From contig BCIG01000012.1 in assembly GCA_001599915.1 (NCBI GenBank), positions 1 to 64,000 on the forward strand: a stretch of 64,000 nt of DNA, given 5' to 3'. The number at the start of each line of letters is the position of its first letter. Positions within the stretch are counted from its first letter, which is position 1. The DNA is from Symbiotaphrina buchneri. Lineage: Eukaryota > Ascomycota > Symbiotaphrinales > Symbiotaphrinaceae. The notes under the pieces were generated by a model. It saw only the letters and a list, made by a program, of their open reading frames with translations. It searched no databases and was not told where the DNA came from. This document shows positions 12,506 to 58,329 of the stretch, piece by piece. The translations under genes were made by a program, and so were the position numbers.

Positions 12506-14305
12506 ATGTCTCTTACACGCATTTCGGACTTCCTCCAGGTGCCTGTGCGCCCCGGAGGGGTTTCCTCCGTCTGGGTATGTCTTGACTTGCCAAAATATAT
12601 CTCCGCAAACTGTCTGAAGCGGCCAACTAACAAGCAGTCCAGATCAACGATGACATCCGGCCGCTACCGCCGTCACGCCGCAAATGGGACAAATATGCCT
12701 ATATCTCCTTCTGGGCAATCAACCAGATCTGCCTCAGCAACTGGCAGGTCGGGGCGTCGCTAGTAGCCGTCGGACTATCGGTATGGCAGACAATGATCGC
12801 CGTCATCGTCGCCAAAATCATCATCGCCGCCGTGGCCGTGGCGAACGGCATGGTCGGTGCCGAATGGCACATTGGCTTCCCGGTCTTCTCGCGCGTCATC
12901 TGGGGCATGTACGGGTCGTACCTCGCGATGCTGCAGCGCATTGTGCTCGGGCTCGTATGGTTCGCCGTACAATCCTGGACAGGCGGGCTGTGCATCACGG
13001 TCATCCTAGCGTCTATCTTCCCGACATTTCAAAACATGAAGAACACCCCCCCAGCCTCGGCGAATATGACTACGCAGGAGTTCATCGGCTGGATCCTCTA
13101 CAATGTCCTGACGATCCCAATGCTCTACGTCCCGCCGGAGAAGAGCCGGAAGCTGCTGATGTGGATGAACGTCGTCTCCTTCACCACGCTCACCTGCATG
13201 ATGATCTACCTGCTCGCGCACGCCCACGGTGCAGGGCCGCTCCTCTCGGCTCCCGCCACAGTGCAGAGTGGCAGTCAGCTGGGCTGGGCGATCGTGCAGG
13301 GTATCACGACCGTCATCGGATCGATCGCAGTGGGCCTGACGAACCAACCCGACTACTCGCGGTTCGCCCGCCAGCCCGGTGACCAGGTCTTCGGCCAGTG
13401 GTTCTCCATCACGTTCTTGGGCGCGCTGCTGCCGCTGTTCGGATGTCTGGCCACCAGTGCGACGCAGGGGCTTTACGGCCAGGCTATATGGAACCCGCCG
13501 GATATCGTCCAACTCTGGCTTACGAATGACTATGGCCCAAAGTCTAGAGCGGCCGCTTTCTTCTGTGGAGTGGGGCTTGTAGTGTGCCAGTTGGCCATCA
13601 ACACGTATGTCTCCCATTCGAATAGAGCCATCTCACTCTCCATTCGAATATGCACATCATTGCTGACATGAACCCAGCATCGACAACGCCTTCTCCGCCG
13701 GCATGGACCTCAGCGGTCTGTTCCCGAAATACATCAACATCCGACGAGGCGCGTACATCGCGCTCGTCATCTCCATCGCCATGTGTCCGTGGGAACTGCT
13801 CGCGTCAGCGGGGACCTTCATCAGCGTCATGTCGGCGTACTCAGTCTTCCTAGGCCCGATGTGCGGGATCCAGATCTGCGACTACTTCATCATCCGCCGG
13901 CGGCGCATCAAGCTCTCGGACCTATACACCATCGACAAGACCGGCTTGTACTACTACACGGCCGGGCTGAACTGGCGCGCGTTCGTGGCGTGGGTCGTGG
14001 GCTTCGCGCCGCAGTTGCCCGGCTTTGTGGCGAATGTCAATACGAGTGTCACGGTGCCGACTGCGAGCATGCGCATGTACTATCTCTGCTACCCGCTGGG
14101 CTTTGCGATTAGTTTCCTGCTCTATTGGGGGTTCAATGTCATTGCACCGCCGAAGGGCGCGGGAGAGTATGATGAGGTGGATTATTTTGGCACGTTTACG
14201 CCGCAGGAAGCTGAGAAGTTGGGCGTTGCGCCGGCTCAGCCTACTGTGGGGTTGGAGGTTGTTGATGAGTACAATAAGGCTACCGATGGGGAGGCGAAGG
14301 TCTAG
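12506..14305 (+). CDS. NCS1 nucleobase/nucleoside/allantoin permease (Fur type), three exons
   Basis: Exons 12506-12574, 12643-13604 and 13678-14305 give 552 residues. The Fur-type signature INDDIRPLPPSRRKW spans the first splice junction, followed by a 12-helix NCS1 core: SFWAINQICLSNWQVG (helix 1), NGMVGAEWHIGFPV, GLTNQPDYSRFAR, and GPMCGIQICDYFIIRRR near helix 9-10. Family members move uracil, allantoin, uridine, thiamine or related compounds with protons or sodium at the plasma membrane. Specificity cannot be read safely. It is followed 400 bases downstream by a deaminase on the same strand, which fits uptake then deamination of an amino-purine or similar base. The promoter has seven GATA sites, indicating nitrogen control. 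Confidence 0.92.
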
Positions 14306-14705
14306 ATGGAGTGCATTGCCTGTGTTCGGCTCTAGATGTTATAGATTGCAGTCATTTGAGAAGTGTTTAAATAATAGAGTACATACTCCAAACTACAGGA
14401 ATCGGGAAGCCTAGGTATGAATGACAATCTGGAGCATTACTCCTTTATACATGTATACGGGCGATAGCATTTCAGTCTGAGATAGTTGTTTCCTTTTGAA
14501 AGCAGCTCTGTGGAGTTTCAACTCTAGGACGCACACCCCCACTTGTGATATGTTTCCACATTTGGGGGTTGCAAGCCGATACCGATAAGAGCCCGAATTA
14601 TCCCACAACCTCATGTTTTGGACCACTCGTCAACCTGTCTCCCTAAGGCAAGGTGAGGTAGTTACCTGCAGACCTCTCATCGGCATCCTTGCCTCCAGTC
14701 CCACC
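14306..14705. other. intergenic with one GATA motif
   Basis: About 400 bases between the permease and the deaminase. CGATAA at 14583-14588 lies about 120 bases before the deaminase ATG. No gene seen. Confidence 0.45.
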
Positions 14706-15758
14706 ATGGCGTCCCCCAGTGCCCTCAAATCCTTCATCTCCAACCTCCCCAAGACCGAATTTCACGTACATATCGAAGGCACCCTCAGCGCCTCTCTCCG
14801 ACTCCAGCTCAGCGCTAAACACCACATCCCCCTCCCAGGGGGCGCGCGCAGTTCCTCCGACCTGCTCGCCTTATACACCTTCCACGATCTACCCAGCTTC
14901 CTCGCCATCTACTACAGCGGCATGGCATGCCTTCGCGACGCCGACGACTTCTACGCTCTGGGCATGGGCTACTTCACGACCGCGGCCGCGCAGCGCGTGC
15001 GCTACGCCGAGATCTTCTTCGACCCGCAGGCGCACACGGCGCGTGGCGTCGCCTTTGGCACTGTTGTCGGCGGCCTGGTGCGTGCCCAGCGTGAGGCTGA
15101 GCGGACATTGGGTGTTCGCTCGAATCTTATTATGTGCTTCCTCCGCGACCAGAGTGCCGGTTTTGCTATGGCTACACTGCTCGAGGCGCTCCCATGGCGC
15201 GAGCATATCCTCGCCGTGGGACTTGATAGCGATGAGAAGGATAACCCCCCGGTGAAGTTCCAAGAGGTGTTTGCGCGCGCGCGGCAGAAGGGATTTATGG
15301 TAACGATGCATTGCGACGTCGACCAGCTGAATACGACGAAGCATATCCGGCAGTGCCTGGATGTGATTGGCGTTGATCGCATCGACCACGGGGTTAATTG
15401 CTACGATGACCCGGAGCTGGTGAAGGAAATTGTGCGTAAGGGCATCGGGCTAACGTTTTGCCCCGTCTCGACGCAGCTGTGCGCGGGCACGGCGTATCCG
15501 GAGAAGATCCGAGAGTTGGTCAAGAAGGGTGTGAAGGTCAGCTTGAACAGTGATGACCCGGCATATATGGGCGCGAATTACATGACCGAGAACTATGCGA
15601 CGATGGTGCAGGAGCTGGGCGGTGGCGTGGATGAAGTGGTGCAGTTTGCGATGATGGGCATTGATATTGCCTGGTGTAGTGAGAAGGTCAAGGAGGAGTT
15701 AAGAGAGGAGTTGGAGACGTATGTGACGGATTATGAGGAGTCTGACAACAAATTATGA
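14706..15758 (+). CDS. adenine/adenosine deaminase-like amidohydrolase with altered proton-donor motif
   Basis: Intronless, 350 residues. I chose the ATG at 14706 because of its CCACCATGG context and because MASPSALKSFISNLPK aligns with the usual start just before the metal site. Metal and substrate motifs of the ADA/Aah1 TIM barrel are present: EFHVHIEGTL (HxH), FFDPQAHT, RIDHGV and NSDDPAY (metal Asp). The motif that normally reads HAGE, whose Glu is the proton donor, here reads HCDVDQ (around 15308), so the Glu is replaced by Val with an Asp next to it. The rest resembles fungal adenine deaminases (LDSDEKDNPP, CPVSTQLC). It may therefore deaminate a different amino-heterocycle. Nearness to the NCS1 permease supports a nucleobase role. 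Confidence 0.87.
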   Translation: MASPSALKSFISNLPKTEFHVHIEGTLSASLRLQLSAKHHIPLPGGARSSSDLLALYTFHDLPSFLAIYYSGMACLRDADDFYALGMGYFTTAAAQRVRYAEIFFDPQAHTARGVAFGTVVGGLVRAQREAERTLGVRSNLIMCFLRDQSAGFAMATLLEALPWREHILAVGLDSDEKDNPPVKFQEVFARARQKGFMVTMHCDVDQLNTTKHIRQCLDVIGVDRIDHGVNCYDDPELVKEIVRKGIGLTFCPVSTQLCAGTAYPEKIRELVKKGVKVSLNSDDPAYMGANYMTENYATMVQELGGGVDEVVQFAMMGIDIAWCSEKVKEELREELETYVTDYEESDNKL

Positions 15759-15925: not shown

Positions 15926-16855
15926 TCACCGCCGGTTCAGCGCCGCCAACGCCGGCAAATAGACGTCAATCGCATCATCCATCGTCGGATACTGCTCCCT
16001 CACATAAATCTCTCCCTTCGAACACTCCATCACCAAGCCCGTCTCCCCACCGCCAAGCACACGTTCATACGCGTTCATAATCGTACTCATCGGCGTGACC
16101 GCATCGCCCGCTACAGTCTCGGCCTCAGGAGGCACCAGCGGCGTCGGCACCAGCCCGGGACACAGCGTATTGAACGTCATGCCCAGACCGCGCAGCACCG
16201 GGTCGGCCCCGAGTGAGCGGATCAAGCCCACCACGCCGTGCTTGGAGGCGCAGTATAGCGGCACCCCCGCGAATCCGTACAGCCCTGTTTGAGAGGATGT
16301 CGCGGTGAATTTGCCCCCTGGGGGCGTGTTGGCTCGGAAATAGCTGATGGCGAGGTAGGCGGCATGGATTGGATGCTGCAAATCGAGCACGACGGTTCGC
16401 AGATCAGGAGCCGGGAGACTGGCTAGGGCGTCAAGGGGAGGAGAGGCAGCGAAGTCGAATGTGTCGGTGATGCCGGCATTGGCGGCAACTGTTCGATCAG
16501 CGTCAACCATGGACTTATCTTCCACCTACTGCCCCTGTGTTGATTCTCCTACGATGTATGCGCATCAAGGCTGCCCCTTCAATTGAGTTCACGCACCAAA
16601 ATCGATCCTCCCATGCTTCGCCCATGTCGCTGCAAATAGATCGCGCAACTCCTCCCACCGCGTGACATTTGTCTTCACAAACGTCCCCGCGCCGTCAAGG
16701 CTCGCGGCGACAGCTTCCCCGCCTGCAGTATTGACATCTGCGATCATGACATGCCAACCTTCGTTCTTCGCAACGAGGTGCTGCGCCAGGGCGGCGCCCA
16801 TGCCGGAGCCGGCGCCGGTGATGATGGCCTGGCGATAAGGGTCAGATAGGAGCAC
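15926..16855 (-). CDS. SDR family dehydrogenase (15-PGDH-like), start unresolved
   Basis: Two exons resolved: 16597-16855 and 15926-16488, intron 16489-16596; the joined product reads RIDFVAANAGI across the junction. Motifs: TGAGSGMG cofactor loop, ADVN after beta2, NAGI, and catalytic YCASKHG. C-terminal residues include PGLVPTPL, typical of SDRs resembling 15-hydroxyprostaglandin dehydrogenase. The frame at 16855 begins with a GTG, so the true start should lie upstream: an ATG near 16895-16900 (MPV) is the only candidate, but it would need a 27-nt intron, which is too short to trust. The substrate is unknown. It converges on the deaminase gene with about 170 bases between stops. Confidence 0.8.
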
Positions 16856-17324: not shown

Positions 17325-19145
17325 CTAGCTGTGGCTGCAACTGCGGATCAACATGAGAATGGACTCCTCTAGCTTGATACTCTCTGCAAGCTCATCATCG
17401 TCATCATCATTCACAGGGGCCACGTCTAAATTCTTGAGCCGTGGCGGGTCAAAACAGAGCAGGACCGCCTTGGCAAACGGCCAGCCGACGACGGAGCGGA
17501 GCTTGAACACAATCGAGTCTTTACTGTCTGCCTCAAGGAACTCAATCAAGGGGGCTGTACTCGTCTGGACTATGGACTTCGTGATCGCCTCCGGGGCCAA
17601 AAGTTTCTCAACCCGCTCCCAGAGTCCGATCTCCAGCAAAACCACCCCGAGCGCGTAGAGATCGAACTCTCTGTTGAAGGAGGGGCGCGAATCACCTAGT
17701 GCCTGAGGGTGCCGATACAGGTTGAGCTCCGGCGTGTCTGGAAGGGCGTCCGAAATTTGCAGTGGGCCGTCTTCTCGAGCGAACTCATAACCCGCCAGAT
17801 ACGGGCCGGTGAAAAAGCTTAAAGCAGGCCATGTCTGTGTATCGAATTGAAGTAACAGAACATTGTGAGTCCAAATGGCTTTGTGTAGCCAGCCGACTGT
17901 GTGTAACTGCAGGACTGGTTCAGCGATATCCGCGGCGAGTTTTATGAGTGCACCGTAATCGACGCGTGCCAGGGTGTGATCCTGTATGATCTCTGCCATG
18001 GACACCACGGGTTTGAGGTCGCCCGTGGACAGGCTTCTGGGAGCTGGCAAGTCAAAGACCAACCCAGATCGACCAGCTTCTGATATTAAGCCTCGGCAGT
18101 GCAGTGTATGAAAGGAGGCATCGTGAGGTTCATTCAGTAATAGCGCCAGCGATTCCACCCGTCGCGCGAGCTTTGCTGCCATTGAAGGCTCAAGCATCTT
18201 CCACTCCACTAGCACCTCATGTTTGTCGTAGTTGGCAAGCTGCCGGCCGTCTTTCAATCTTACCGAGTCGTTACGTCTCAATTTTCCGGCAATGAGTTTG
18301 ATCTGTTTCAGACGTTGTGCTCGTACCGCCTTAGGTGTCAATTTTGGTCTATCAGTCCTTTCGACCGTGTTCACAGAGTTCTGTCCGGCATTTTCACCCC
18401 CATCAATCTCATCCACACCATATTCGATACGAGCTTTCTTGAGGTGGCTCAAAGAGCTCATGTCAAGGGAGGATGCAGCGACTTGAGGCACCGTGCCGCC
18501 CGTTGGTAGGCAACAGAGCATGTCTAGCTCGTTCTTCCCTGAGTTAGAGACAATACCTCGTCGAAGAAGCGATTGCAAAGCCTGGATGATGAATTGTTGG
18601 TCTTTCCACGCTAGCATCTCAAACAACCGGTCGATAAGGGCCTTTAGCTGGTCCAAAAGTCTGTCAAACTTCTCTTTATCCGCTACAGCCCATCGGAGAC
18701 GCTTGAGAGGCCCGCTATGTGAATGCAGCACGTTTGAGGTTGCCATTTCGAACGTCGAGCGTCTTGGGAGCTTCAACAGTCTTGACAACCCCCGGACCTC
18801 CTCCTCACTAATGACCGTCTCGTCCTCAACAAGCTTGAGATGATACCTTAATTCTATAGCTGAGGTGTCCGTGAGTAACGTCTTCAGTTGACTTAAGACG
18901 TCGTTTACTCGCGTCCAATCGAGCTCGTATTGAATGTTTTGTGACGCTTTTGTCAATCCGACTCTGTCCTCCCATTCGATAAGGCGCACTTCTTCCCACT
19001 GAAGTGTCCGGCGGGCGTAGTCAGCATTTTGTCCAAATCCACGGGCCGTGGAAAGGATCGTGAAACCCTTAATGCATCCTTGAATGAGGCTGATGCCGAA
19101 CGAAATAAGGCCAGTAATAGCCGCAGCCTCGCCAAGACCCGCCAT
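17325..19145 (-). CDS. HeLo domain protein with C-terminal pseudokinase (DUF7580-like)
   Basis: Intronless, 606 residues, with the start set at the ATG at 19145 (MAGLGEAAAITGLISFG); the upstream codons begin only with GTG. Residues about 1-200 match the HeLo fold of HET-S and related fungal death effectors: a hydrophobic first helix, then a GFTILSTARGFGQNADYARR region, the counterpart of the family's FGRDYERC segment, and RLIEWEDRVGL. The C-terminal half is kinase-like: LHTVGWLHKAIWTHNVLLL sits where the catalytic loop should be but has no HRD Asp, and PYLAGYEFAR replaces DFG. DLYALGVVLLEIGLWE fits kinase helix F. So it is a HeLo plus pseudokinase, the layout of animal MLKL. HeLo domains kill by permeabilising membranes once triggered. 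It is divergent, 354 bases away, from a kinase-ankyrin gene. Confidence 0.82.
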   Translation of the reverse strand: MAGLGEAAAITGLISFGISLIQGCIKGFTILSTARGFGQNADYARRTLQWEEVRLIEWEDRVGLTKASQNIQYELDWTRVNDVLSQLKTLLTDTSAIELRYHLKLVEDETVISEEEVRGLSRLLKLPRRSTFEMATSNVLHSHSGPLKRLRWAVADKEKFDRLLDQLKALIDRLFEMLAWKDQQFIIQALQSLLRRGIVSNSGKNELDMLCCLPTGGTVPQVAASSLDMSSLSHLKKARIEYGVDEIDGGENAGQNSVNTVERTDRPKLTPKAVRAQRLKQIKLIAGKLRRNDSVRLKDGRQLANYDKHEVLVEWKMLEPSMAAKLARRVESLALLLNEPHDASFHTLHCRGLISEAGRSGLVFDLPAPRSLSTGDLKPVVSMAEIIQDHTLARVDYGALIKLAADIAEPVLQLHTVGWLHKAIWTHNVLLLQFDTQTWPALSFFTGPYLAGYEFAREDGPLQISDALPDTPELNLYRHPQALGDSRPSFNREFDLYALGVVLLEIGLWERVEKLLAPEAITKSIVQTSTAPLIEFLEADSKDSIVFKLRSVVGWPFAKAVLLCFDPPRLKNLDVAPVNDDDDDELAESIKLEESILMLIRSCSHS

Positions 19146-19499
19146 TGGGATGGATAGGCTCACTCTAGATAGAATGAACCTTAAGCCAAACTTGTGTGAT
19201 CTCGCAACAGATCGAACACGTTTGTATCACGGTTGAGAGGCCAGGGTTTTGTGTGAGGCGAGGTGGCCTGCCGATGGTCGGCGAGAGGATAACCCCGCGG
19301 CGACGGAGCTGAGAAGGTATGCAAGCCACTTTATGCAGAGGATCACATGTACGCGGAACAGACCAATCAGCGCTGGTTGCCACCCACCGCTCCATCACTT
19401 TTGCACAGCAGGCCGACGACAGCCTTCTTTTACGTGCTGAACTGTACGCCCGCCTGCTTTGAGATATCCCCATAGGTCCTCCCAACGGCTTATTAGCCG
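19146..19499. promoter_or_regulatory. shared divergent promoter of HeLo-pseudokinase and kinase-ankyrin genes
   Basis: Only 354 bases separate the two start codons (19145 leftward, 19500 rightward), so both genes probably share regulatory sequence. I do not see a clear TATA box or known operator. Confidence 0.45.
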
Positions 19500-22078
19500 A
19501 TGGTGTTTTCTATGCAGCCTGTTCATTTCCCCCCGGGGCCATATTGCTTGCTTTCCTTGCACACACTGATCCTGGACCTGGAAGACATGGCTAACAGAAT
19601 GAACAGAATGGTACGGCCTGATCTGAGCACATACGTCGCTCTCACGGGCGAATCAATCTTTAGCTGGACGCTGCCAGACTACCTCCGATATCCACACAGT
19701 GTGGCAGCTTCCGTGACTATCGGTTCTGGGACGTCGTATATCATCACACGAAAGGCTGTAGGAAGACCGAGAGACGACAGCCTCCAGGCCGAGATGGGTG
19801 GCATCTCCATCAGTACCAATCCTACCAGACCTGTGGAGATCCCCAAGTTCGTGGTATACAAAATAGCACGAGTGCGCTTTGACGAAGTTGGAAATGCGGA
19901 ACTTGAGGATCAAGCCAAATTTGCCAGTGCTTTCCGTGACTACATTGTTCTTAGCCATCCGCCTGTGATGAAGCACAAGAACCTCATCACACTGCTTGGT
20001 TTGGCCTGGGGCTCGAACCACGAGGTCGAGCTAGACAGGATACCAATACCCATCATTCAGCATGCTGACTGCGGCAATCTGGCTGATTATCAGCAGCAGA
20101 ACATGCTAGGGTTCAAAGAGAAGGGTCACGTATTGATGGATATTGCAACTGGGATAGAGTTCCTGCATAGGTGCGATATCATCCATGGAGATGTAAAGAG
20201 TGAGAATGTACTGCTCTTTCGGCAAGTTGGTGGGACATTGCTCGCAAAGCTTACCGATTTTGGATCCTGTATTCCGGGTGGGCTGGGGGTATTCAATGCC
20301 CTCACGCCGGGCACATCGATGTGGTCTGCTCCAGAGATCATCAACGGGAGTGATGTGACGACATTGCGGCCACAAGCGGACACTTTCTCTTTTGGTCTGA
20401 CGGCTTGGAGAATCACTCTGGATGGTGCAGACCCTCTTTGTGATATGATACTGGGTGGATATTCTCTTGAAAATCGAGGTGTACACTTCCCCATTGAGTC
20501 TCGTATCATGCCATCATTCTCCCATTCAAATATAAGAATAGAGGAGGATAGGTTGAAGAGACTGCTAGCGGACAATGCGTTGCTGGACAGATCTCGACCG
20601 GAGAACTGGACAGCGCAGTATTTTTGGATTGCGTTGCAACGTGCAAGCCAAGGGCGCAACCCGGCAGATACTCTACGAGTAGTCCAAAATGACATACTTA
20701 CTGAAAGGATACGTTACATGGAATGTCTTGAGCTTGTTCTCAGCAAGTGTCTGTCCGTCAACATAGATGAAAGGGACCTTGTCCATGCTGTGAAGGAACT
20801 TGAGAGATATAATGGTCGAGCTCAGAAGTATGCAAATGTTATCCATCCATATTCACCTACTGACTGCTGCCTCAGCACACCTGAGCCGACACCCGTGTCA
20901 ATTAAATCCACCAGGTTGTATAAGATGGCTTCTACCAATGGTGTAAGCCGGGAGTAAACGCCCTGGAAGAGGTCTGCTGTGCTAACCTGTGCAATAAGTT
21001 CACCATGTCTTACCTGAAGATGAGGGATATGCACCCCTATATATCGAACTATATCCTTGGGCATTTTGTTCATAGGGCTCAGAAGGCTAGAGTCCTAGGC
21101 AGACCTTTGAGAGCCATCGAAACCGCAAACTGTGCCTGTTACATGAGTGGGATGGGCTCTGATCGTAGGTACGACGAAAGAAAAGCCCTCGGCTACGTTG
21201 TACAAGCTGGTTCTGGTGAGGGCTTTGAAAGCACTGGAGCAAGTTCCATGGCCTACCGCCTTGCCACAGCCTTCGGAGGCAGCATCGAAGGTACTGATGT
21301 GGGTTCAATGCTGGAATGGTCCGCGGGCCGAGGTTCACTCGCAGCAATGGAGGACCTAGCGCAGGCCTATCCCGAGAGGGTTCCGAATGCTCTGAACATG
21401 CTCCGAACCCGCGGCTGTGGGGTTGGCGCTGACTTCCTGCTTCACATTTATCCACAATGGGTCTTCCCCAAATTTCGTGATGTCAACACCGTGCGCCACT
21501 TTCTGGATCAAAATAACTTCCCTCCACAGGCTCTGATCATAAACAGAGACGGCGACTCTCTGCTGCACGTAAACGCTTGTTATGGGTCATTGGAGGTCGT
21601 CCAAATGCTCGTGAAAGAGTATGGCGTCGATATTGAACTTCGAAATAAACGTGGCGAGACGCCCCTGCTCTGCGCGATCCGGTCTGGGCACTTGCGCTTG
21701 GTTAAATGGTTGTTGGAAAGAAGGGCCGATGCTGGCGTCAAATCTACTCGGAACGAGACAACGCTGCATTGGCTTTTCTCCTTCCCCGACGAAGAAATCC
21801 CGGATTTATTGCGGACACTGATCACGCACGGTGCTGATACATCATGTACGATCTGGGCAGATCACTGCGACTACGCGGCTCAGGAGATTTCCACCTACCA
21901 CGACCGGTGGGACAAACCTGGAGCAGGAACCGCTCTCCACTGGGCTATAAGCAGGAATCGGAAGATGATAGTGGACTGTCTAATGGACGCAGGAGCGAAT
22001 TGCCAATACTATGCTGAGTCAATGCGCAACACAACGGCGATAGAGCTTGCTTCTTACAGCCACTATCATGACATCTGA
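19500..22078 (+). CDS. protein kinase with ankyrin repeats, N-terminal portion
   Basis: Exons 19500-20942 and 20999-22078 with a 56-nt intron (gtaagc donor, gctaac branch), both phase 0. The kinase domain occupies about residues 75-400: GSGTSYIITRK nucleotide loop, YKIAR (candidate VAIK Lys), HGDVKSENVL (catalytic Asp and Asn kept, HRD Arg replaced by Gly), KLTDFGSC and SAPEI. It therefore looks catalytically competent. After the intron come sel1/helical-type sequence and ankyrin repeats such as DGDSLLHVNACYGSLEVVQM and RGETPLLCAIRSGHLRLVKW. The frame stops at TGA 22076-22078 in the middle of a repeat, right after SYSHYHDI, while repeats continue in another frame just downstream. Read as the first part of one longer gene, interrupted there. 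Confidence 0.8.
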
Positions 22079-22083
22079 GCTCT

Positions 22084-23334
22084 TTGATTGATAGACTAAC
22101 AGGTAAGCCCAGACCTCGGCTCCTCGATCTTGGCCAGAGATCAGTACTTGTTACTGAAGGCGCTGTCACTGAAGGAGCTCGCACTCTGACTAGGGTGTCT
22201 CATCTCATCAAGGAAGCTATTGACGGCTCCGACCGGTTCCTGATGGTTCTAAGACACGGGAAGGACTGGGAAACCTCTCTGAAAAGGACTATTGAAGTTT
22301 TGGGTCGGCAGCTATCCTTCCGAATCTTCCTAGCTGGTGTAGACGGCAAAGGCCGATCACCGTTACAATACGCCGCCTTTCGTGGTCATCATGAAGTCGC
22401 TCCATATATTCTAGATCACATGGACGGTTCCAGTCTCGTTAACCAACCGTACCAAAGAGATGGAGGAGCAACACCCATTTTTGATTCAGCCAAGACGGAC
22501 AATAAGACACTTTTCAATCTGTTACAATCAAGAGGCGCAAGAATGGACGTCCGCATAGATTGCCCCGGCAGACCAGGCTCTCCAGACTGGTCGCTTCTTC
22601 ATGTCGCAGCACAGAACGTCATCGCCAAGGATCTGACTCTAGCAGAATCTATCCTTGAAGTGATCCCACCTGATGGTTTCGAGAACCTGGATGATCCGCC
22701 TGCCACACCACTGGCAGTTGCGCTCGAATACAATAGCTTCGGACTGGCCACACGCCTACGGCAGCTGGGAGCCAACATCAACGCCCGTTCAGCCTACGAT
22801 CTACACGAGCCACCAAGATGGTCTGGCACATTCCGTCTGACTGTTCTCGGAGCAGTCGTTGCCGGTAACCTTCGAGATTGCCTAGAGCGGCTGCAGTACC
22901 TACTGTGGCCGGATGAAACGTGCTCCGAATACCCTCAGCCTGACTTCGTCGTAGAGCCCGACAGGGGATGGACAGCGCTCCACGTCGTGGCCTTGGGCTC
23001 TCAGCTGTACACCGAGCCGGAAATACCGGACTTGCCGACACAGAAAGACGTTTTAGCACGCCTCCTGGAAAGATATGATTCCGCCGACGACCTCAATGCC
23101 ACCACAGTAGAGGAGGGAATGACCGCATTGCATATTGCAGTCGATAGATTGCATTCGTGGGCGGTGGAGCAGCTGCTGGATATGCCGGACCTCAACATCT
23201 CTGTTCAGGATATCACTTCACGGACAGCAATGGAGATACTTCAGCAGAAGTTTGCGGGGCTCACGGATGGCTCCAAGGAGTGGGAAGCAGCAGAGCATAT
23301 TCGAGTGTTGTTGGAGGAGCATCTCAACCAATGA
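22084..23334 (+). CDS. ankyrin-repeat continuation of the kinase gene, shifted frame
   Basis: Open frame of about 416 codons with no good ATG at its left edge (the first is near 22243). It holds further ankyrin repeats: GRSPLQYAAFRGHHEVAPY, SLLHVAAQN, GWTALHVVALGS and MTALHIAVDRLHSWAVEQLL. It begins only a few bases after the stop of the kinase-ankyrin frame. Two explanations fit. One base may be missing near 22074-22076, since HDI followed by SSLIDRL restores repeat spacing. Or a donor site may be lost: a gactaac branch and gcccag acceptor end at 22112, and CTGAGC at 22075 would be a GTGAGC donor after one substitution. Either way the gene looks broken, or carries a sequencing error; independent expression of this part is less likely. 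Confidence 0.68.
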   Translation: MIDRLTGKPRPRLLDLGQRSVLVTEGAVTEGARTLTRVSHLIKEAIDGSDRFLMVLRHGKDWETSLKRTIEVLGRQLSFRIFLAGVDGKGRSPLQYAAFRGHHEVAPYILDHMDGSSLVNQPYQRDGGATPIFDSAKTDNKTLFNLLQSRGARMDVRIDCPGRPGSPDWSLLHVAAQNVIAKDLTLAESILEVIPPDGFENLDDPPATPLAVALEYNSFGLATRLRQLGANINARSAYDLHEPPRWSGTFRLTVLGAVVAGNLRDCLERLQYLLWPDETCSEYPQPDFVVEPDRGWTALHVVALGSQLYTEPEIPDLPTQKDVLARLLERYDSADDLNATTVEEGMTALHIAVDRLHSWAVEQLLDMPDLNISVQDITSRTAMEILQQKFAGLTDGSKEWEAAEHIRVLLEEHLNQ

Positions 23335-31764: not shown

Positions 31765-33055
31765 ATGCTCGAGATCGAGATCCACTGCATCGGCAGTTCA
31801 TACGAGGTTTGTGGTCATTGCATGCACAACCCTTTGTAAACCCCCCACTGCTGACACCCGTGCTAGATCGGCCGCCTGCATGGCGCGGCGGCGCACGCGC
31901 ATATCGCACGGGGCATCAAGTTCTACGCTGCGTACTTCATGACGAAGGCCAGCATGGATTGGGAGGGCGCGAAGAAGACGGCGGTAAAGTTCCTTCCGCT
32001 CCTGGAGGCGGAGTGGCCTGGATATGTAGAGGAGATGAAAGGTGGGGTGGCGCTCTGATGTTGCATTGATTGACGTTCTTTTCTTTGGTTTTCAGGGGCT
32101 TTTCAAGAGTTGATAAGGGAGCATATTACTTTGCTTGATGGTTGCTGATGATGATTGATTCCCAGGCATCGCCGACGGAGCGGGCGTCGCCTTTGAGGAT
32201 ATCCTCGCGATGAACGTCCGCACGGAGATCTCAATGGGCCTGATGACGGACGGATGTACAGCACTGTACTGGAAACGGGACGAAGCAACTCTGCTCGCCC
32301 AGAACTGGGACGTACGTCCACCCTCCTGCCCCCTCGCAGTCTTTGCTCCTGACCTTTCACAGTGGGAACTCGACCAACAAGCCAACCTCGTTGCACTATA
32401 CATCAGCCAGCCGGGCAAGCCCACGATCGCACAGATCACCGAGGGCGGCATCATCGGAAAAATCGGGCTCAACTCCTCGGGAGTGGGGACATGCTTGAAC
32501 GCCATCCGCGCGAAGGGCGTCGACTTCACACGGCTGCCGACACACATCGCTTTACGCGCCGTGCTCGAAAGCCCGTCCGCCTCCGCCGCCATCGCCACGC
32601 TGGACCGCACGGGCATCGCATCAGCATGCCACATCCTGATCGGCGACGAGACGACCGCAACGGGGTACGAGGGCTCGTATCTAGACGTGCAGAAGCTGCC
32701 CGTGCGCGAGGGCAAGGTCGTGCACTCGAACCACTTTGTGGCAGCGCACCCGGCCGAGGCGTCGCAGGGGTCCTTCAGCAAGGACTCGTATTACCGTATT
32801 GAGCGCATGCAGCAGCTCGTTGATGAGGCCGAGGCGAAGGAGAAGCCGCCTACGCTGCAGACGGTCGAGAAGATGCTGGAGGATGAAGGGAATTTTCCGG
32901 CGGCGATTAATCGCCAGGTTAGTGAGGAGAGTAAGAGCGTCACGCTGTTTAGTATTGTGATGGATCTGGTGGCGAAGAAGGCGAGCGTTAGGCTGGGCAG
33001 GCCGACGGAGGCGAAGGAGAGGTTGGAGTTGGATCCGAGGAAGTTTGATTATTGA
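31765..33055 (+). CDS. acyl-CoA:6-aminopenicillanic-acid acyltransferase-like Ntn hydrolase (AatB type), four exons
   Basis: Exons 31765-31806, 31867-32041, 32166-32311 and 32363-33055 give 351 residues. It belongs to the C45 Ntn-hydrolase family of penicillin acyltransferase. The self-cleavage site is TDGCTALYW: the chain would be cut between Gly and Cys, freeing Cys as nucleophile. Other matches: IGRLHGAAAH, NVRTEIS, QNWDWE, GIIGKIGLNSSGVG, RLPTHIALRAVLES, HSNHF and SVRLGRP. It ends RKFDY, so it lacks the C-terminal ARL-type peroxisomal signal of PenDE and is more like the cytosolic paralogue AatB. No penicillin synthetase or IPN synthase gene is nearby, so a general acyl or amide hydrolase role is more likely. 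The first exon codes only 14 residues. Confidence 0.9.
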
Positions 33056-50141: not shown

Positions 50142-51742
50142 CTAAAGACGAGAAGAGACACCACGGCCTTCCAGAGTCGCAGCAATGCCCTTGTAATTGG
50201 GGAACTTCTCTTCTGGGTCCCATTTCTTCCGTATCTCGAGGAACCGTCTCAATGCATTATCTGTCATGACCTACATGCTATTAGCGCCCCCGGCCTTATT
50301 CAAATGGTTCAGAACCATGATCTCGATTTACCTTTGGAAGTCTTTGATTGACGTCGAAATCTGCGATGTATGTCCCGACGGCGACCTTCTCTGCCTCGGC
50401 GAAGACGTCGCGCATCCAAGCCCGCATCTTCCCGTCCCACGTTGGGTCCGTCCAACATGTCATGCTGGCGATGTAGTATTGCTGCGGAAGGCTGAATGCT
50501 TGTTTCTTCTCGTCGGGATATATATCTGCAAAGGCAATGCAGCCGATGGAGCGTCGACTGGGTAAGTCTGTCATGGCTGGTAGGATCGACCTGATCAGCT
50601 GTTACAGTGTCAGCAAATTCACACCATCGCGGACAAGGTCGAATGCGGCTGACCTGCTTCCTGGGCACCTTTGGATCGCTCAAGATACTGTCGCACTGCC
50701 ATCTCTCGCCCTTGCCGGAAGGATTGAGAGCGTCCTGCGCCACAAACAACTCGTCCCATGTCGCTTCAGCCACATCGACGACTTGCAGAACCATTTCCTT
50801 CAGTTGCTCAGGCACATCGCCAAACGCACTCAGATATCCCTCCGCCTCTTCCTTCGTGTGCGTATACGCCAGAGCCTCCAGCACCACCATCAGCGTCCTA
50901 TCCTGCACCTCATCACCCCTCTTCTCCTCATACTTATCCCTATAAAACGTAACCAGCGCCGCATCCGTCGGGCTCTTCTCGGGGATCTTCTCCACCGCTT
51001 GCATCGCCCATTCCAACACCCGCGCAACCCTCTCCCGCGTCTGCTCACCCTCTCCAACACTCATCACAAGCGTGCGATGCCAGACCCTCCTCCTCTCCAT
51101 CGTCCGCCCCCAAAACCGCGTCACCACCCCAAAAAGCGCCTGCCCGCTGCCCCTGGCCGCCCAGAACACATCGCTATTCTCTTCCTCGCTCGCAACAAGC
51201 ACGCTCCCGTCCGGCATCACGACCTCCATCTTCTCAATCCACGACTCGCACGTCGCGCCCCACGCGCGCATGAACCAGCCCTGCCCGCCAGCCAGCAGGA
51301 ACCCGCCCATGCCCACAGTCGGCGAGTGGCCATGCGGGAAAAACCGCCCTCGCGCCGCCATGAAGGTGCCCATGTCCCGCCCGCGCACGCCCGGCCCGAA
51401 GGATACGGTGCCCGTGGAGGGGGAGTAGGAGAGCGTGTTCAGTAGTGAGAGGTCCAGTAGCAGCCCGTTGGAGAGAAGCGCGCTGCAGGGGAAGAGGTGC
51501 CCGCCGGAGCGCACGCCGATGCGCAGAGAGTGCGTTCGCGCGTACTGCATGGCCCAGACGACGTCGGCGGTTGTGGCGGGCCGGATTATGAGTGAGGGAC
51601 GAGAGGGAGGGAGGGCCGCGTTGAAGAACCGGCTTAGGTGCGTGGTGTACGAGGGCGAGGAGCGCGTGTGGATTTCTGGCTCTGAGCCTGGCGGCGGTGG
51701 TGGATCCATGGGGAGGTCGGTCTTTGGCTCTTCGTATGCCAA
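50142..51742 (-). CDS. FAD-linked oxidoreductase, berberine-bridge-enzyme (BBE) type, three exons
   Basis: Exons 50654-51742, 50332-50598 and 50142-50270; phases agree, 494 residues. PCMH-type FAD domain: IIRPATTADVVWAMQYAR, then IGVRSGGHLFPCS with the His that usually binds the 8-alpha carbon of FAD, GPGVRGRDMGTF, and GMGGFLLAGGQGWFMRAWGATCES, whose Cys sits where bicovalent enzymes bind FAD at C6. The C-terminal BBE motif KKWDPEEKFPNYKG lies in the last exon. No signal peptide, so probably cytosolic. The substrate is unknown; such enzymes oxidise sugars or secondary-metabolite intermediates. The oleate hydratase lies about 530 bases upstream on the same strand. Confidence 0.9.
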
Positions 51743-52270
51743 CAGATTGACGGCTTGGTGATGTGTTTATATCTTATTTTTATTTTATTGAAAAGGTGCT
51801 TGAAGTTCATGCGTGTTTTCTGGACACACTGTGATACCCCACACTATGCAGGGCCAGATCCTGTCCGTGGGGTTGCCCCACATCATCCGTCATCTCCAGT
51901 TATATAGATTATTGCTATATCTCGAACCAGTAACATAAAGCAATTATATTTAGCCCAGATCAGAGAAGTGGAGAGGAGTCATGGTGTTAATCTCTACGAC
52001 ACTTTATACGTACAGAGTCTCTCCAGTTAAAGGGTATCTATGGTGTCTTCAGTTTCCGTCCACTTACGGATATCCAAACTAGGAATTGCGAAGCCTGGCA
52101 AGGCGTTCGGGGTTCAGAGGCCTGGTAACTTATTTCCTGAGTATACGTTCCATATACATTCCCTGATCCAAACACTCAAGCACACCTTCCAACTCAGCTC
52201 CCCAAAAGCCTTCCCAACCCAATCTCTCATCACCCCTCACCACATCCCCTCCCCCATCCCCCAAAGCACC
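51743..52270. other. intergenic
   Basis: About 530 bases between the FAD oxidase start and the oleate hydratase stop. AT-rich, holding the oxidase promoter. No gene recognised. Confidence 0.45.
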
Positions 52271-54139
52271 CTAAACAATCAACGTCTTCAGCACCTGAAA
52301 CATCGTGCCCAGATCATGTTCGCCCCTATAAACCCTCGGCACCTTAACATCCACACCCATCAACTCCCTGACCGCCATGCCCGCTCCTCTAACACTATAC
52401 TCAACTGTAAAGACCACATCATCGGCAATCTCCACAAACTGGCCTAGACACGCCAGATTCACGCTCTCCCGCGGCACCACAGGCGGTCTGTCGCTCTTGC
52501 AGCGAGTCAGGAATTGCGATGTGATGAAGGGCAGGTTCGCGGGGATGCACACGGCGCTGTCGGCGATGCTGGACGGGAAGGAGAGGTGCGAAAGGAGTTC
52601 GAGCAGGATCTCGTGCCCGCTGCACGAGGTCATGGGTTTGTGGACGTAGTCGCCTTGGTGGGAGGGGAAGAGCCCGTAGCCCCAGAAGACGGTCACGTCG
52701 GAGGGCTGGTTGAGAAAGTGTGGCTGGTGGGGCACGACGATGCTGTTGTGGCGGGATTTAGTCAGTCAGTCAGTCCGCCCGGGTGGGATGATGGAGATTG
52801 GGGGATAGTAGCGGAGAAGGGAGGCGTACCTCATAAGCCACGCGCTGTCTTTGAACGTGACCAGCGCGCCCGTGCCGGGTTCGTTGTTGGACCATTTCTC
52901 GTACAGCTCGATGAAGGTGGGGTCTTTTAAGGTGACTGTGAAAGAGAGCCAGTCCGATTCTGGAACGCGACTGCAGAAGTTTTTCGGGTTCCCCAGCGAA
53001 TTCCGCTTGGCGGCGATGTTTTGCCATAGCTCCCATGAGGGGTCGAGGGACCAGTCTTCGGCTGGAGGAGTGGTGTTGCTGCCGAGCGAAGACCCGGATG
53101 TCATGCTGCTGCGGGGTTGTTAGCTTTGTTCTCTTGATTTTGATGCACTGGGAGGCTGGAGCATACCCTAGGGTGACAAAGACGACGTCTTCGGGCTTGA
53201 CGTAGATGATGTTGAATTCGCCTTCGTGCTCGAGATGGATCTCTTCGACTATGGTTTGATCAGAGTGGGCGAAAGCCAGGTCACGAACAACAGTATCTTG
53301 CTTGACGTTAGACAAGACCGCTCTGTTGAATACACGGAGCTTTGACATACGTGTTTGAAAGTCGACACATTTCGACGTGAGGAAGGTGATTAATGGAAGA
53401 ATAATGCTGTCGTATTGATTATAGGGTGTGCGGTCCACGCCAGCTAATGAACGAATCCGCGGAAACTCCTGAATGAAGCGATGGAGATATCTCCTGAATT
53501 CAACAGCACTGTGCCACGGCTGAAAAGCGAACCTAGCACGGGTAAGCAAATTCGACGTTGTCTGACATGCCGAATGTGGTGGCAACTGCGTATATATACT
53601 TACGTCGTAGCCCACATGAACCAAAAATCCGTCATAAAAAAATGCGGCTCAAAGCAATCCTCAATCCTCTTCACCCCGAGGCTATCCTCACTCTGCACCG
53701 TCATCTCCACCAAATCCAGTTTATCCTTCGCGCTCAACCCCAAACTCCTATACGGCACGATCTCCGGCTTCCCATCTTCCCCCTTCGCCACCAGCCGCGC
53801 ATTCGCATGCGTCTTGTGGACTTTGTTAAACTCTCGGATCTCGTCCATGACCGTCTTGTTCTCGTCCGTCAGGCTGGGTATGCGCGAGAGCAAAGAGTAG
53901 GTGCACAGGTACGTGAAGTTCAGCATGCGCCCGCCGCGCGCGATGTACCCCGCGTGCGGGTCGCCGGCGCCGTTCATGGAACCCCCGGGCAGATCGCCAG
54001 CTTCGAGGATGTGGATCTGGGAGGGAGGCACGTGGGCGTCGAGGAGGAGATGCGCGGCGGCTGCGAGGGAGGCGATGCCCCCGCCTACGAGGTAGGCATG
54101 TGTGCGCTCTGGATTGCGATGTGTCTTGTGTGATGTCAT
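52271..54139 (-). CDS. oleate hydratase (MCRA family), four exons
   Basis: Exons 53604-54139, 53167-53532, 52830-53108 and 52271-52742; all phases agree, 550 residues. The FAD Rossmann motif is AYLVGGGIASLAAAAHLL. GGSMNGAGD and ARGGRMLNFTYLCTYSLLS carry the acidic and Arg-containing active-site loops of the family. Further matches are PWHSAVEFRRYLHRFI, VDRTPYNQYDSIILPL and, near the end, FWGYGLFPSHQGDYVHKPM. Family members add water to the cis-9 double bond of oleic and related acids to give 10-hydroxy acids, using FAD structurally. Length and motifs look complete. It may be involved in detoxifying or modifying free fatty acids. Intron 3 contains a (GTCA)n run near 52764-52780. Confidence 0.94.
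52762..52780 (+). repeat. short GTCA tetranucleotide repeat in an intron
   Basis: About four copies of GTCA in the third intron of the oleate hydratase gene, immediately before the polypyrimidine/acceptor side when read on the gene strand. Confidence 0.7.
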
Positions 54140-56836: not shown

Positions 56837-58329
56837 CTAAACATGCTCAATCGGCTCCTCAGGCAACAACTCCTCCAGCCCACCCCTGCCCTGTCCCCCG
56901 GCCTTCTTCTCCGGCGGAGGCACACACGCCCTCAACGGCGGGGCAACAATATCATTAAACAGGAACGTGCCATAGACCAGCAACACGAACCCAACGACTT
57001 GCAACCACTTGAAGCTCTCCCAGCCCAGGCCCAGCGAGACGAGCCAGATGAACAGCGTGCGGCACGTGTCGATGGTAGAGCGCGCCGTGGCGGATACCGA
57101 GCGTGTCACTGAGAGGCCGAAGAAGTTGAAGCCCCTGGTTGGTCGCACGGGTGGGTTAGTTGGAAGCTCAGGCAGGAGGGAGGGAGAAGGTTTGGAGGGG
57201 TGGGGGCTTACCCGATGCTGATCATGATGAGCACGCTGGACACGGCAATGGCGCGGTAATGCGTTAGTTCTCTCCATCCCTCGCTGGCATCGAAGTAGCC
57301 ATAACGGCCGCTCTCGGTTCTTCCGACCGCGAAGTACATGATGATCATGCCTAGCACCGTCACCAGAAACCCGAATATACCCTCCCAGCCCACGACTTTC
57401 AGCGGCTCCAGCGCGTAATTCTCCAGGATCCATTCTTCCAGCACGAACTGCGTGGCCGTGAAGATCTGCGCGCCCGCAATCAGCAGCACCCCGATGATCG
57501 TCTTGAGCGCGTCCGTGGTGGCAGGGTGCTCGACGACCGTGCGGAACATCAAGCCCGTCACATCATGCAAGCTCTGCTCGTCCGGTGATGGCGCCGATTT
57601 GCGGTTCCATATCGCGCCCGCCAGGCCCACGATCCCGACTCCCAGCACGACGACCACAAGCGCGAACCACTGGTACAGCCAGACCCTGCGCCCTAGGAAA
57701 ATCACGCTGAAGCAGCCCACGAACAGCACCAGCGCTCCACGCGTCATCTGGTATATACTTGCCGCCACGAAGAGCAAGCCGACATTCATCAACGTGGTCC
57801 CGGCAATATCGCAGCACGCTGGGAGAGCAAGCAGTATAACCCGCCATGACGTCAGCGGCCGCCGTTCGGGATGTGAGGGTACGAGAGGTTTGGCAACGGG
57901 GTTGGGGATGTCGGTGGAGGAACGGCGCGAGAGGAGCGCTTCGTCTTCGGCTGCGGTGTCTTCGGCGCTGGCGGGCACGGGGGTGTAGGTGGGTTGTGGG
58001 AAGAAGCGGTAGTAGATGTATGAGCCAAAGACGACGAGCCAGCAGCCCATTTCACCGACGAACATTTGGGCCCTAGGATTGTCAGAGTTGGATCGTATGG
58101 AGAACCCGGGAAACATACGTTTGAATGACAGGCTGCTCGAACAGTCGCTGCCTCTTCGGGTCGGGATCATGACAGTTGCCCACACATTGCATATCCTGCT
58201 TTCTGTCAGAAACCATCCTGAACCTTTGGGACGGTAGAAACATACCTGATACTTCGAGAGCAGCGTATTACACACCCCAGTGACGAGCATCATTGTCACC
58301 AAGAACGGGATGAGCGCCCCGGCCGCCAT
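56837..58329 (-). CDS. SLC35F6-like nucleotide-sugar/DMT-family transporter, four exons
   Basis: Exons 58246-58329, 58119-58195, 57212-58072 and 56837-57134 give 439 residues. Helix 1 is IPFLVTMMLVTGVCNTLLSK, followed by the family block DMQCVGNC and FEQPVIQTAQMFVGEM. A long acidic loop (residues about 85-130) separates it from the DMT core: LPACCDIAGTTLMNVGLLFV, SIYQMTRGALVLFVG, FTATQFVLEEWILE and a final LQVVGFVLLVYGTFLFNDI. These match the SLC35F6/C2orf18 group of EamA-fold proteins found in lysosome, mitochondria or vacuole membranes. Substrate unsettled in the family. The C-terminus is hydrophilic (PPPEKKAGG). Intact. Confidence 0.88.

What the first reader, a model, noticed from the sequence alone, without database searches (positions are those of the whole stretch)
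17325..23334. Divergent HeLo-pseudokinase and kinase-ankyrin gene pair, RIPK-MLKL-like in layout
The leftward gene joins a HeLo domain (HET-S family, structurally related to the MLKL killer bundle) to a kinase fold that has lost the HRD Asp and DFG. The rightward gene, 354 bases away and sharing its promoter, encodes a kinase with DFG, HGD and APE motifs, plus ankyrin repeats. Active kinase plus pseudokinase-HeLo recalls RIPK3-MLKL or RIPK4-like architecture. Motifs are seen; HeLo cell-death function is established for the family; pairing as one death module is inference.
Basis: partly seen in the sequence, partly recalled or inferred. Interest (0 to 1): 0.78.

Follow-up and report, generated by a model that had tools for sequence, protein, structure and literature searches.

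The report
Fungal MLKL-like killer beside a kinase
A fungal gene joins a membrane-attacking HeLo domain to what looks like a dead kinase, the same layout as the human cell-death protein MLKL, and it sits next to a kinase-ankyrin gene that could be its switch, though that partnership is untested and the neighbour's reading frame appears broken here.

Summary
The leftward gene is real: one uninterrupted 606-codon frame (17325-19145, minus) with a strong HeLo domain (PF14479, E 8.2e-30). Its C-terminal half is very probably a degenerate kinase: 7 of 7 PDB hits are kinases, but weak (best E 0.047) and five are GCN2; 0 of 4 hits of three shuffles are. The HRD Asp is missing and no Asp lies at any candidate DFG position. 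This is MLKL architecture, which a 2025 review already notes for fungal HELL domains. The rightward gene has a clear kinase C-lobe (E 1.2e-17) with HGD, DFG and APE, plus ankyrin repeats. DUF7580 was not matched. The functional pairing is inference: no fungal genomes were available to test conserved adjacency, and both structure predictions failed (pLDDT 34 and 35). Divergent HeLo-effector/sensor pairs are known (het-S/nwd2); a kinase-ankyrin partner instead of an NLR would be a new variant, if real.

The parts
17325..19145 (-). HeLo-pseudokinase gene, 606 codons, single exon
   Evidence: Uninterrupted frame from ATG 19145 to stop
18573..19115 (-). HeLo domain (residues 11-191)
   Evidence: PF14479, E 8.2e-30, profile 4-190 of 205; phmmer to HET-s structure 2wvo, E 7.6e-4, residues 19-175
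19056..19145 (-). First-helix region (residues 1-30); residues 7-25 are the most hydrophobic 19-residue stretch of the protein (mean Kyte-Doolittle 1.78)
   Evidence: the N-terminal helix is the membrane-attacking element of HET-S (PMC12881547, PMC10197012, passages)
17406..18245 (-). Degenerate protein-kinase domain (about residues 301-580, limits approximate)
   Evidence: PF06293 E 0.02 and PF07714 E 0.054, both below cut-off; 7 of 7 PDB hits are kinases (five GCN2, one JAK2, one HRI), best E 0.047; controls 0 of 4
18198..18209 (-). VEWK, candidate VAIK-type lysine (K316)
   Evidence: position; assignment by eye
17862..17885 (-). Catalytic-loop equivalent HKAIWTHN: HRD Asp replaced by Ala, Asn kept
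   Evidence: aligned with the catalytic loops of GCN2 and of the neighbouring kinase
17781..17825 (-). ALSFFTGPYLAGYEF (residues 441-455), region where DFG should lie; no Asp in any of three candidate registers
   Evidence: see full report
19146..19499 (.). Intergenic gap between divergent genes (354 bp; 441 bp if translation starts at 19587)
19500..20942 (+). Exon 1 of kinase-ankyrin gene (start 19500 or, more likely by context, 19587)
19968..20447 (+). Kinase domain, the part matched by Pfam
   Evidence: PF07714 E 1.2e-17, PF00069 E 2.3e-17
20184..20216 (+). HGDVKSENVLL catalytic loop (Asp present, HRD written HGD)
20256..20264 (+). DFG
20328..20336 (+). APE
20943..20998 (+). Best candidate intron, 56 bp, GTAAGC / GCTAACC branch / AAG
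   Evidence: joins kinase and ankyrin frames; 8 of 10 listed candidates keep the frame open, this has the best donor
20999..22075 (+). Exon 2, first ankyrin part
   Evidence: PF12796 E 8.4e-32
22072..22078 (+). Frame break inside an ankyrin repeat (stop in one frame, repeat-like sequence resumes in another)
   Evidence: Ank_2 alignment (E 0.0026) runs to the last residue before the stop, profile position 75 of 90; 4 candidate introns across it, all with poor donors
22079..23334 (+). Second ankyrin part, out of frame with the first in this sequence
   Evidence: PF12796 E 1.6e-16

Best explanation
The leftward protein is a fungal regulated-cell-death effector with MLKL architecture. An N-terminal HeLo bundle attacks the plasma membrane with its first helix when released, and a catalytically dead kinase domain acts as the switch that holds it back. 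The neighbouring kinase-ankyrin gene encodes an active-looking protein kinase fused to a repeat domain of the kind fungal sensors use. It may be the upstream trigger, but that link is not shown, and in this sequence its ankyrin part is frame-broken. Shown: the HeLo domain, the loss of the HRD Asp, the kinase motifs of the neighbour, the ankyrin repeats and the adjacency. Inferred: pore formation, restraint by the pseudokinase, and any phosphorylation of one protein by the other.
For: HeLo PF14479 at E 8.2e-30 over nearly the whole model, and direct phmmer similarity to the HET-s HeLo structure, E 7.6e-4. The first-helix region holds the most hydrophobic stretch of the protein. At the position aligned with HET-S residue 33 the residue is Gly, not the Pro said to account for the non-killing HET-s allele (PMC10197012, passage). 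The C-terminal half is kinase-like in 7 of 7 PDB hits (five of them GCN2) against 0 of 4 for three shuffles, and aligns with the neighbouring kinase with catalytic loops in register (score 45, shuffle mean 34.0, sd 4.9; 19 of 500 shuffles reach it; blastp E 0.17). Human MLKL likewise lost DFG (to GFE) and the catalytic-loop Asp (HGK) (PMC5104457, passage). [quoted passage not shown]
Against: No function was tested. The kinase fold of the C-terminal half rests on sub-threshold matches (Pfam best E 0.02; NCBIfam 0 families). In the whole-protein PDB search one of 6 hits, to the HeLo part, is an unrelated factor (HES-1, E 0.72). AlphaFold2 without relatives gave mean pLDDT 34.0 for the whole protein and 35.0 for the HeLo part, so the fold is neither supported nor refuted. 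No homologue was found to show that the dead-kinase residues are conserved as dead. Some HeLo domains do not kill: that of HET-s exerts no toxicity (PMC3321046, passage).
Confidence: 0.62

Rival explanations
1. True two-gene death module: the kinase-ankyrin protein senses a signal through its repeats and phosphorylates the pseudokinase's activation segment, freeing the HeLo domain, as RIPK3 does with MLKL. (The three rivals overlap in part; their odds need not sum to one.)
For: Divergent adjacency. One partner has kinase motifs and the other is a pseudokinase with HeLo. Candidate acceptors S465, T471 and Y477 lie between the DFG region and HPQ (read). HET-S homologues in all species analysed in PMC3321046 lie next to STAND genes, and het-s/nwd2 are divergently transcribed (passages). 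With a guessed 5-20 ankyrin kinases per genome, a HeLo gene beside one would arise by chance only about once in eight to a hundred genomes.
Against: Adjacency seen once, not tested in relatives. From recalled gene numbers (100-150 kinases and 10-30 HeLo genes among about 10,000), a HeLo gene beside a kinase of any sort is expected by chance about once in every one to five genomes. The neighbour's ankyrin part is frame-broken. The two proteins share no terminal segment by a generic test.
Confidence: 0.28
2. Chance neighbours: the HeLo-pseudokinase is switched by another signal (an NLR elsewhere, a ligand of the pseudokinase, another kinase), and the kinase-ankyrin gene is unrelated.
For: Of 20 flanking frames scanned at E up to 1e-5, 14 matched Pfam: mostly metabolic or transport families, plus one HLH factor and DUF7223; none is an NLR or HET domain. 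The chance argument for kinases at large also applies. No shared terminal segment.
Against: Ankyrin-fused kinases are rarer than kinases at large (recalled), and the orientation and short gap recall known effector/sensor pairs (PMC3321046).
Confidence: 0.5
3. A decaying or recently lost locus: the kinase-ankyrin gene is a pseudogene in this strain and the pair no longer functions, as nwd2 is inactivated in wild het-s strains.
For: Frame break inside an ankyrin repeat. PMC3321046 (passage) reports nwd2 inactivated by a transposon insertion in wild het-s isolates.
Against: The HeLo gene and the kinase exon are open. A single frame break may be an assembly or sequencing error, and an intron with a weak donor (for example 22018-22112) is not excluded.
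Confidence: 0.3

Closest known systems
MLKL (animals), executioner of necroptosis
   Same: N-terminal HeLo/four-helix-bundle family domain followed by a kinase domain that lost the catalytic Asp and DFG (MLKL: HGK and GFE, PMC5104457, passage)
   Different: Very low sequence similarity: MLKL is not among the 6 or 7 PDB hits at E up to 10. A brace region was not looked for, and no site of a partner kinase is known.
Plant MLKLs and Pm13
   Same: HeLo (DUF1221)-type bundle plus a kinase or pseudokinase domain, in immunity (PMC10951266, passages)
   Different: Plant family; Pm13 keeps an active-looking kinase. Not compared by sequence here.
Fungal HELL-domain proteins with kinase or pseudokinase domains
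   Same: Same architecture, stated in a review (PMC12881547, passages)
   Different: The review names HELL domains, whereas this one matches HeLo (PF14479). No characterised member came up in my searches.
HET-S/NWD2 of Podospora anserina
   Same: HeLo effector gene divergently transcribed from an adjacent gene for a repeat-bearing protein (PMC3321046, passages)
   Different: No prion-forming C-terminus matched (PF11558 not listed). The neighbour has a kinase instead of a NACHT domain and ankyrin instead of WD repeats.
RIPK3 / RIPK4-type kinases
   Same: Protein kinase; RIPK4 also carries ankyrin repeats (recalled)
   Different: The 8 best PDB sequences are TYK2, TNIK and MINK1, not RIPKs (E up to 1e-9); the Pfam scans listed no RHIM or death domain.

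Membership tests
HeLo (PF14479) | Match to the curated profile above its cut-off | tested here: met
   104.6 bits against a cut-off of 23.2, E 8.2e-30
HeLo (PF14479) | Helical-bundle fold | tested here: inconclusive
   Single-sequence models, pLDDT 34.0 and 35.0; N-terminal part mostly helical but not usable
HeLo (PF14479) | Membrane-targeting cell-death activity | not testable with these tools
   needs expression
Protein kinase-like fold, leftward protein | Match to a kinase profile above its cut-off | tested here: not met
   PF07714 13.2 bits against 23.1; PF06293 14.8 against 21.3
Protein kinase-like fold, leftward protein | Kinase relatives by sequence beyond chance | tested here: met
   7 of 7 PDB hits kinases, five of them GCN2, best E 0.047; three shuffles 0 of 4, best E 0.57
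Pseudokinase | Loss of catalytic Asp and of the DFG Asp | tested here: met
   HKA for HRD; no Asp at any of three candidate DFG registers
   no match at E up to 1 or up to 10 for the C-terminal half; presence of the model in this Pfam copy not verified
MLKL | Orthology to animal or plant MLKL | tested here: inconclusive
   MLKL not among 6 or 7 PDB sequences at E up to 10; no tree could be made
MLKL | Activation by phosphorylation from a partner kinase | not testable with these tools
   needs biochemistry
HET-S/NWD2-type amyloid pair | Shared amyloid motif: effector C-terminus and sensor N-terminus | tested here: not met
   Generic local alignment only: C-terminal 80 aa against N-terminal 90 aa scores 19, shuffle mean 22.5, 438 of 500 reach it; linker against N-terminus scores 25, mean 23.4, 163 of 500
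Conserved two-gene module | Adjacency kept in relatives | not testable with these tools
   no fungal collection; viral and prokaryotic scans found nothing
Active protein kinase, rightward protein | Kinase profile plus Lys, catalytic Asp, DFG, APE | tested here: met
   PF07714 E 1.2e-17; VVYKIA, HGD, DFG, APE; the alphaC Glu may be Asp (by eye)
RIPK family | RIPK as nearest kinase, RHIM or death domain | tested here: not met
   no RIPK among 8 sequences at E up to 1e-9 (weaker hits not listed); no RHIM or death domain in the Pfam list

The most novel reading that the evidence does not exclude
A fungal necroptosis-like module without an NLR or amyloid: an ankyrin-sensor kinase encoded divergently from a HeLo-pseudokinase that it phosphorylates to release the pore-forming bundle, meaning the RIPK3-MLKL logic (active kinase switching on a pseudokinase killer) exists as a two-gene cassette in fungi.
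Probability: 0.2. Interest if true: 0.88.

Novelty: new variant of a known kind. Interest (0 to 1): 0.45.

Why it matters
The 2025 review of fungal cell death asks for wider exploration of HeLo/four-helix-bundle proteins in fungi and for clarity on how far necroptosis is conserved there (PMC12881547, passage). A HeLo-pseudokinase beside a candidate activating kinase is a concrete, testable case. If the kinase switches the pseudokinase, kinase-controlled killing by a HeLo bundle would be shown in fungi, in a form distinct from NLR-amyloid signalling.

Tried and rejected
No relatives were found. IMG/VR scans with the HeLo protein and with the kinase gave 6 and 1 pattern matches but no confirmed relative; GTDB scans gave 57 and 3 pattern matches and no relative. 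These are viral and prokaryotic collections, so this says nothing about conservation in fungi. The window's own genome is not held. A tblastn of both proteins against the window found no second copy, only a chance-level match at 57769-57855 (E 0.82). AlphaFold2 on the whole HeLo protein and on its first 220 residues gave pLDDT 34.0 and 35.0; no fold search was run on such models. An amyloid-type shared segment in the HET-S/NWD2 manner was looked for by a generic alignment and not found. Four candidate introns across the ankyrin break were listed (donors GTGGAC, GTCTAA, GTCAAT twice). They are disfavoured because they would remove residues that align to the ankyrin profile up to position 75 of 90 (a weak match, E 0.0026). 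NCBIfam gave 0 families for the HeLo protein, and for the kinase only matches far below their cut-offs. The bacterial promoter scan of the gap was run but has no bearing on a fungus. Reading GYE in LAGYEF as the counterpart of MLKL's GFE is attractive but unproven: one search puts DFG opposite FTG, and the GCN2 alignment puts it opposite ALS. Papers: DUF7580 is in no held paper. Searches (all hits listed: 9, 12, 12, 1; 25 of 106, 15 of 110, 10 of 557 listed) show no title on a HeLo-pseudokinase/kinase-ankyrin pair. Only open-access papers are held; the 2016 PNAS paper on the HELL domain (PMC4790977, cited in the review) is not.
Full report
What is there. The window is taken to be from a filamentous fungus, from its introns and gene families. 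On the minus strand, one frame of 606 codons runs from ATG 19145 to a stop at 17325. Residues 11-191 match HeLo, PF14479, at E 8.2e-30, and phmmer finds the HET-s structure 2wvo at E 7.6e-4. The most hydrophobic 19-residue stretch of the whole protein is residues 7-25 (mean Kyte-Doolittle 1.78), in the first-helix region that in HET-S does the membrane attack (PMC12881547 and PMC10197012, passages). At the place aligned with HET-S residue 33, where a change from His to Pro is said to account for the non-killing HET-s allele (PMC10197012), this protein has Gly36 (alignment).

The second half of that protein. Pfam gives only sub-threshold kinase matches: PF06293 E 0.02 and PF07714 E 0.054; NCBIfam gives none. 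phmmer of this half against the PDB gives 7 sequences at E up to 10, and all 7 are kinases (best E 0.047). They are not independent: five are GCN2, one JAK2, one HRI. Three shuffled copies gave 2, 1 and 1 hits, none a kinase, best E 0.57. A local alignment with the neighbouring kinase scores 45 against a shuffle mean of 34.0 (sd 4.9), reached by 19 of 500 shuffles, with the catalytic loops in register; blastp gives the same register at E 0.17. I take it as a degenerate kinase. The catalytic loop is HKAIWTHN: the HRD Asp is Ala and the Asn is kept. The DFG position is not settled. Three registers are possible: residues 441-443 ALS by the GCN2 alignment; 445-447 FTG, which keeps the 22-residue spacing of the neighbour; 452-454 GYE by eye, by analogy with MLKL's GFE. 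None has an Asp, so loss of the metal-binding Asp holds whichever is right.

The rightward gene. The kinase C-lobe is clear (PF07714 E 1.2e-17, PF00069 E 2.3e-17), with VVYKIA, HGDVKSENVLL, DFG, APE and ADTFSFG in order. The N-lobe is not covered by the Pfam matches; by eye the alphaC Glu may be an Asp. The 8 PDB sequences at E up to 1e-9 are TYK2, TNIK and MINK1; none is a RIPK. A second break at 22072-22078 is different. The ankyrin profile aligns, weakly (E 0.0026), up to the last residue before the stop, ending at profile position 75 of 90, and a repeat-like segment resumes in another frame. The 4 candidate introns across it have poor donors and would remove aligned repeat residues. The likeliest reading is a frame break, from mutation or sequencing error. 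As given, the sequence encodes the kinase and the first ankyrin block only. Start choice matters too: ATG 19587 has the better context, giving a 441-bp gap instead of 354.

How it most likely works. By family knowledge, the HeLo bundle permeabilises the plasma membrane when its first helix is freed, and in MLKL the pseudokinase is the switch. The same division of labour is my best reading of the leftward protein. Whether the neighbour works that switch is open. For: HET-S homologues in all species analysed in PMC3321046 lie next to STAND genes, and het-s and nwd2 are divergently transcribed (passages). Against: one instance, no conservation test, a frame-broken partner, no shared terminal segment by a generic test (438 of 500 shuffles score as high; 163 of 500 for the linker), and unremarkable flanks. 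Of 20 flanking frames scanned (of 65 frames of 180 aa or more listed, four of which belong to this locus and another of which lies opposite the kinase), 14 matched Pfam at E up to 1e-5: PhyH, sugar and purine permeases, adenosine deaminase, SDR, two MFS, DUF7223, AAT, HLH, FAD_binding_4, MCRA and a nucleotide-sugar transporter; no NLR or HET domain. From recalled gene numbers, a HeLo gene next to some kinase should occur by chance about once in every one to five genomes; next to an ankyrin kinase (guessed at 5-20 per genome), about once in eight to a hundred.

What is known. [quoted passage not shown] So the architecture is not new. A kinase-ankyrin partner in place of an NLR is in no title listed by my searches, which cover open-access papers only and in three cases listed a part of the hits. 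MLKL's own losses are HGK and GFE (PMC5104457, passage). Plant Pm13 keeps an active-looking kinase on the same layout (PMC10951266, passages). Passages of PMC9815663, PMC4986451 and PMC12258605 treat kinase and HeLo domains as parts of NLRs or as effectors, not this pair. Passages of PMC5148876 and PMC5910433 had nothing on it.

Verdict. The leftward protein is a fungal protein of MLKL architecture, probably a death effector. The pair as a RIPK-MLKL-like module stays a hypothesis that the tools here could neither support nor refute.

Noticed in passing
22072-22078: Frame break inside an ankyrin repeat of the kinase-ankyrin gene; mutation, sequencing error or an unusual intron.
   Followed up: partly
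12631-15758: Purine/cytosine permease (two frames, PF02133) next to an adenosine deaminase (PF00962) on the same strand: looks like a purine-salvage pair.
   Followed up: no
15929-16525: A short frame matching only the C-terminal half of a short-chain dehydrogenase (PF00106 profile 105-191 of 195); may be spliced or partial.
   Followed up: no
32159-33052: Acyl-CoA:6-aminopenicillanic acid acyltransferase family protein (PF03417, E 6.9e-22).
   Followed up: no
50312-53648: MCRA family frame (PF06100, 52773-53648) near a FAD-binding oxidoreductase frame (PF01565, 50312-51766), both on the minus strand.
   Followed up: no
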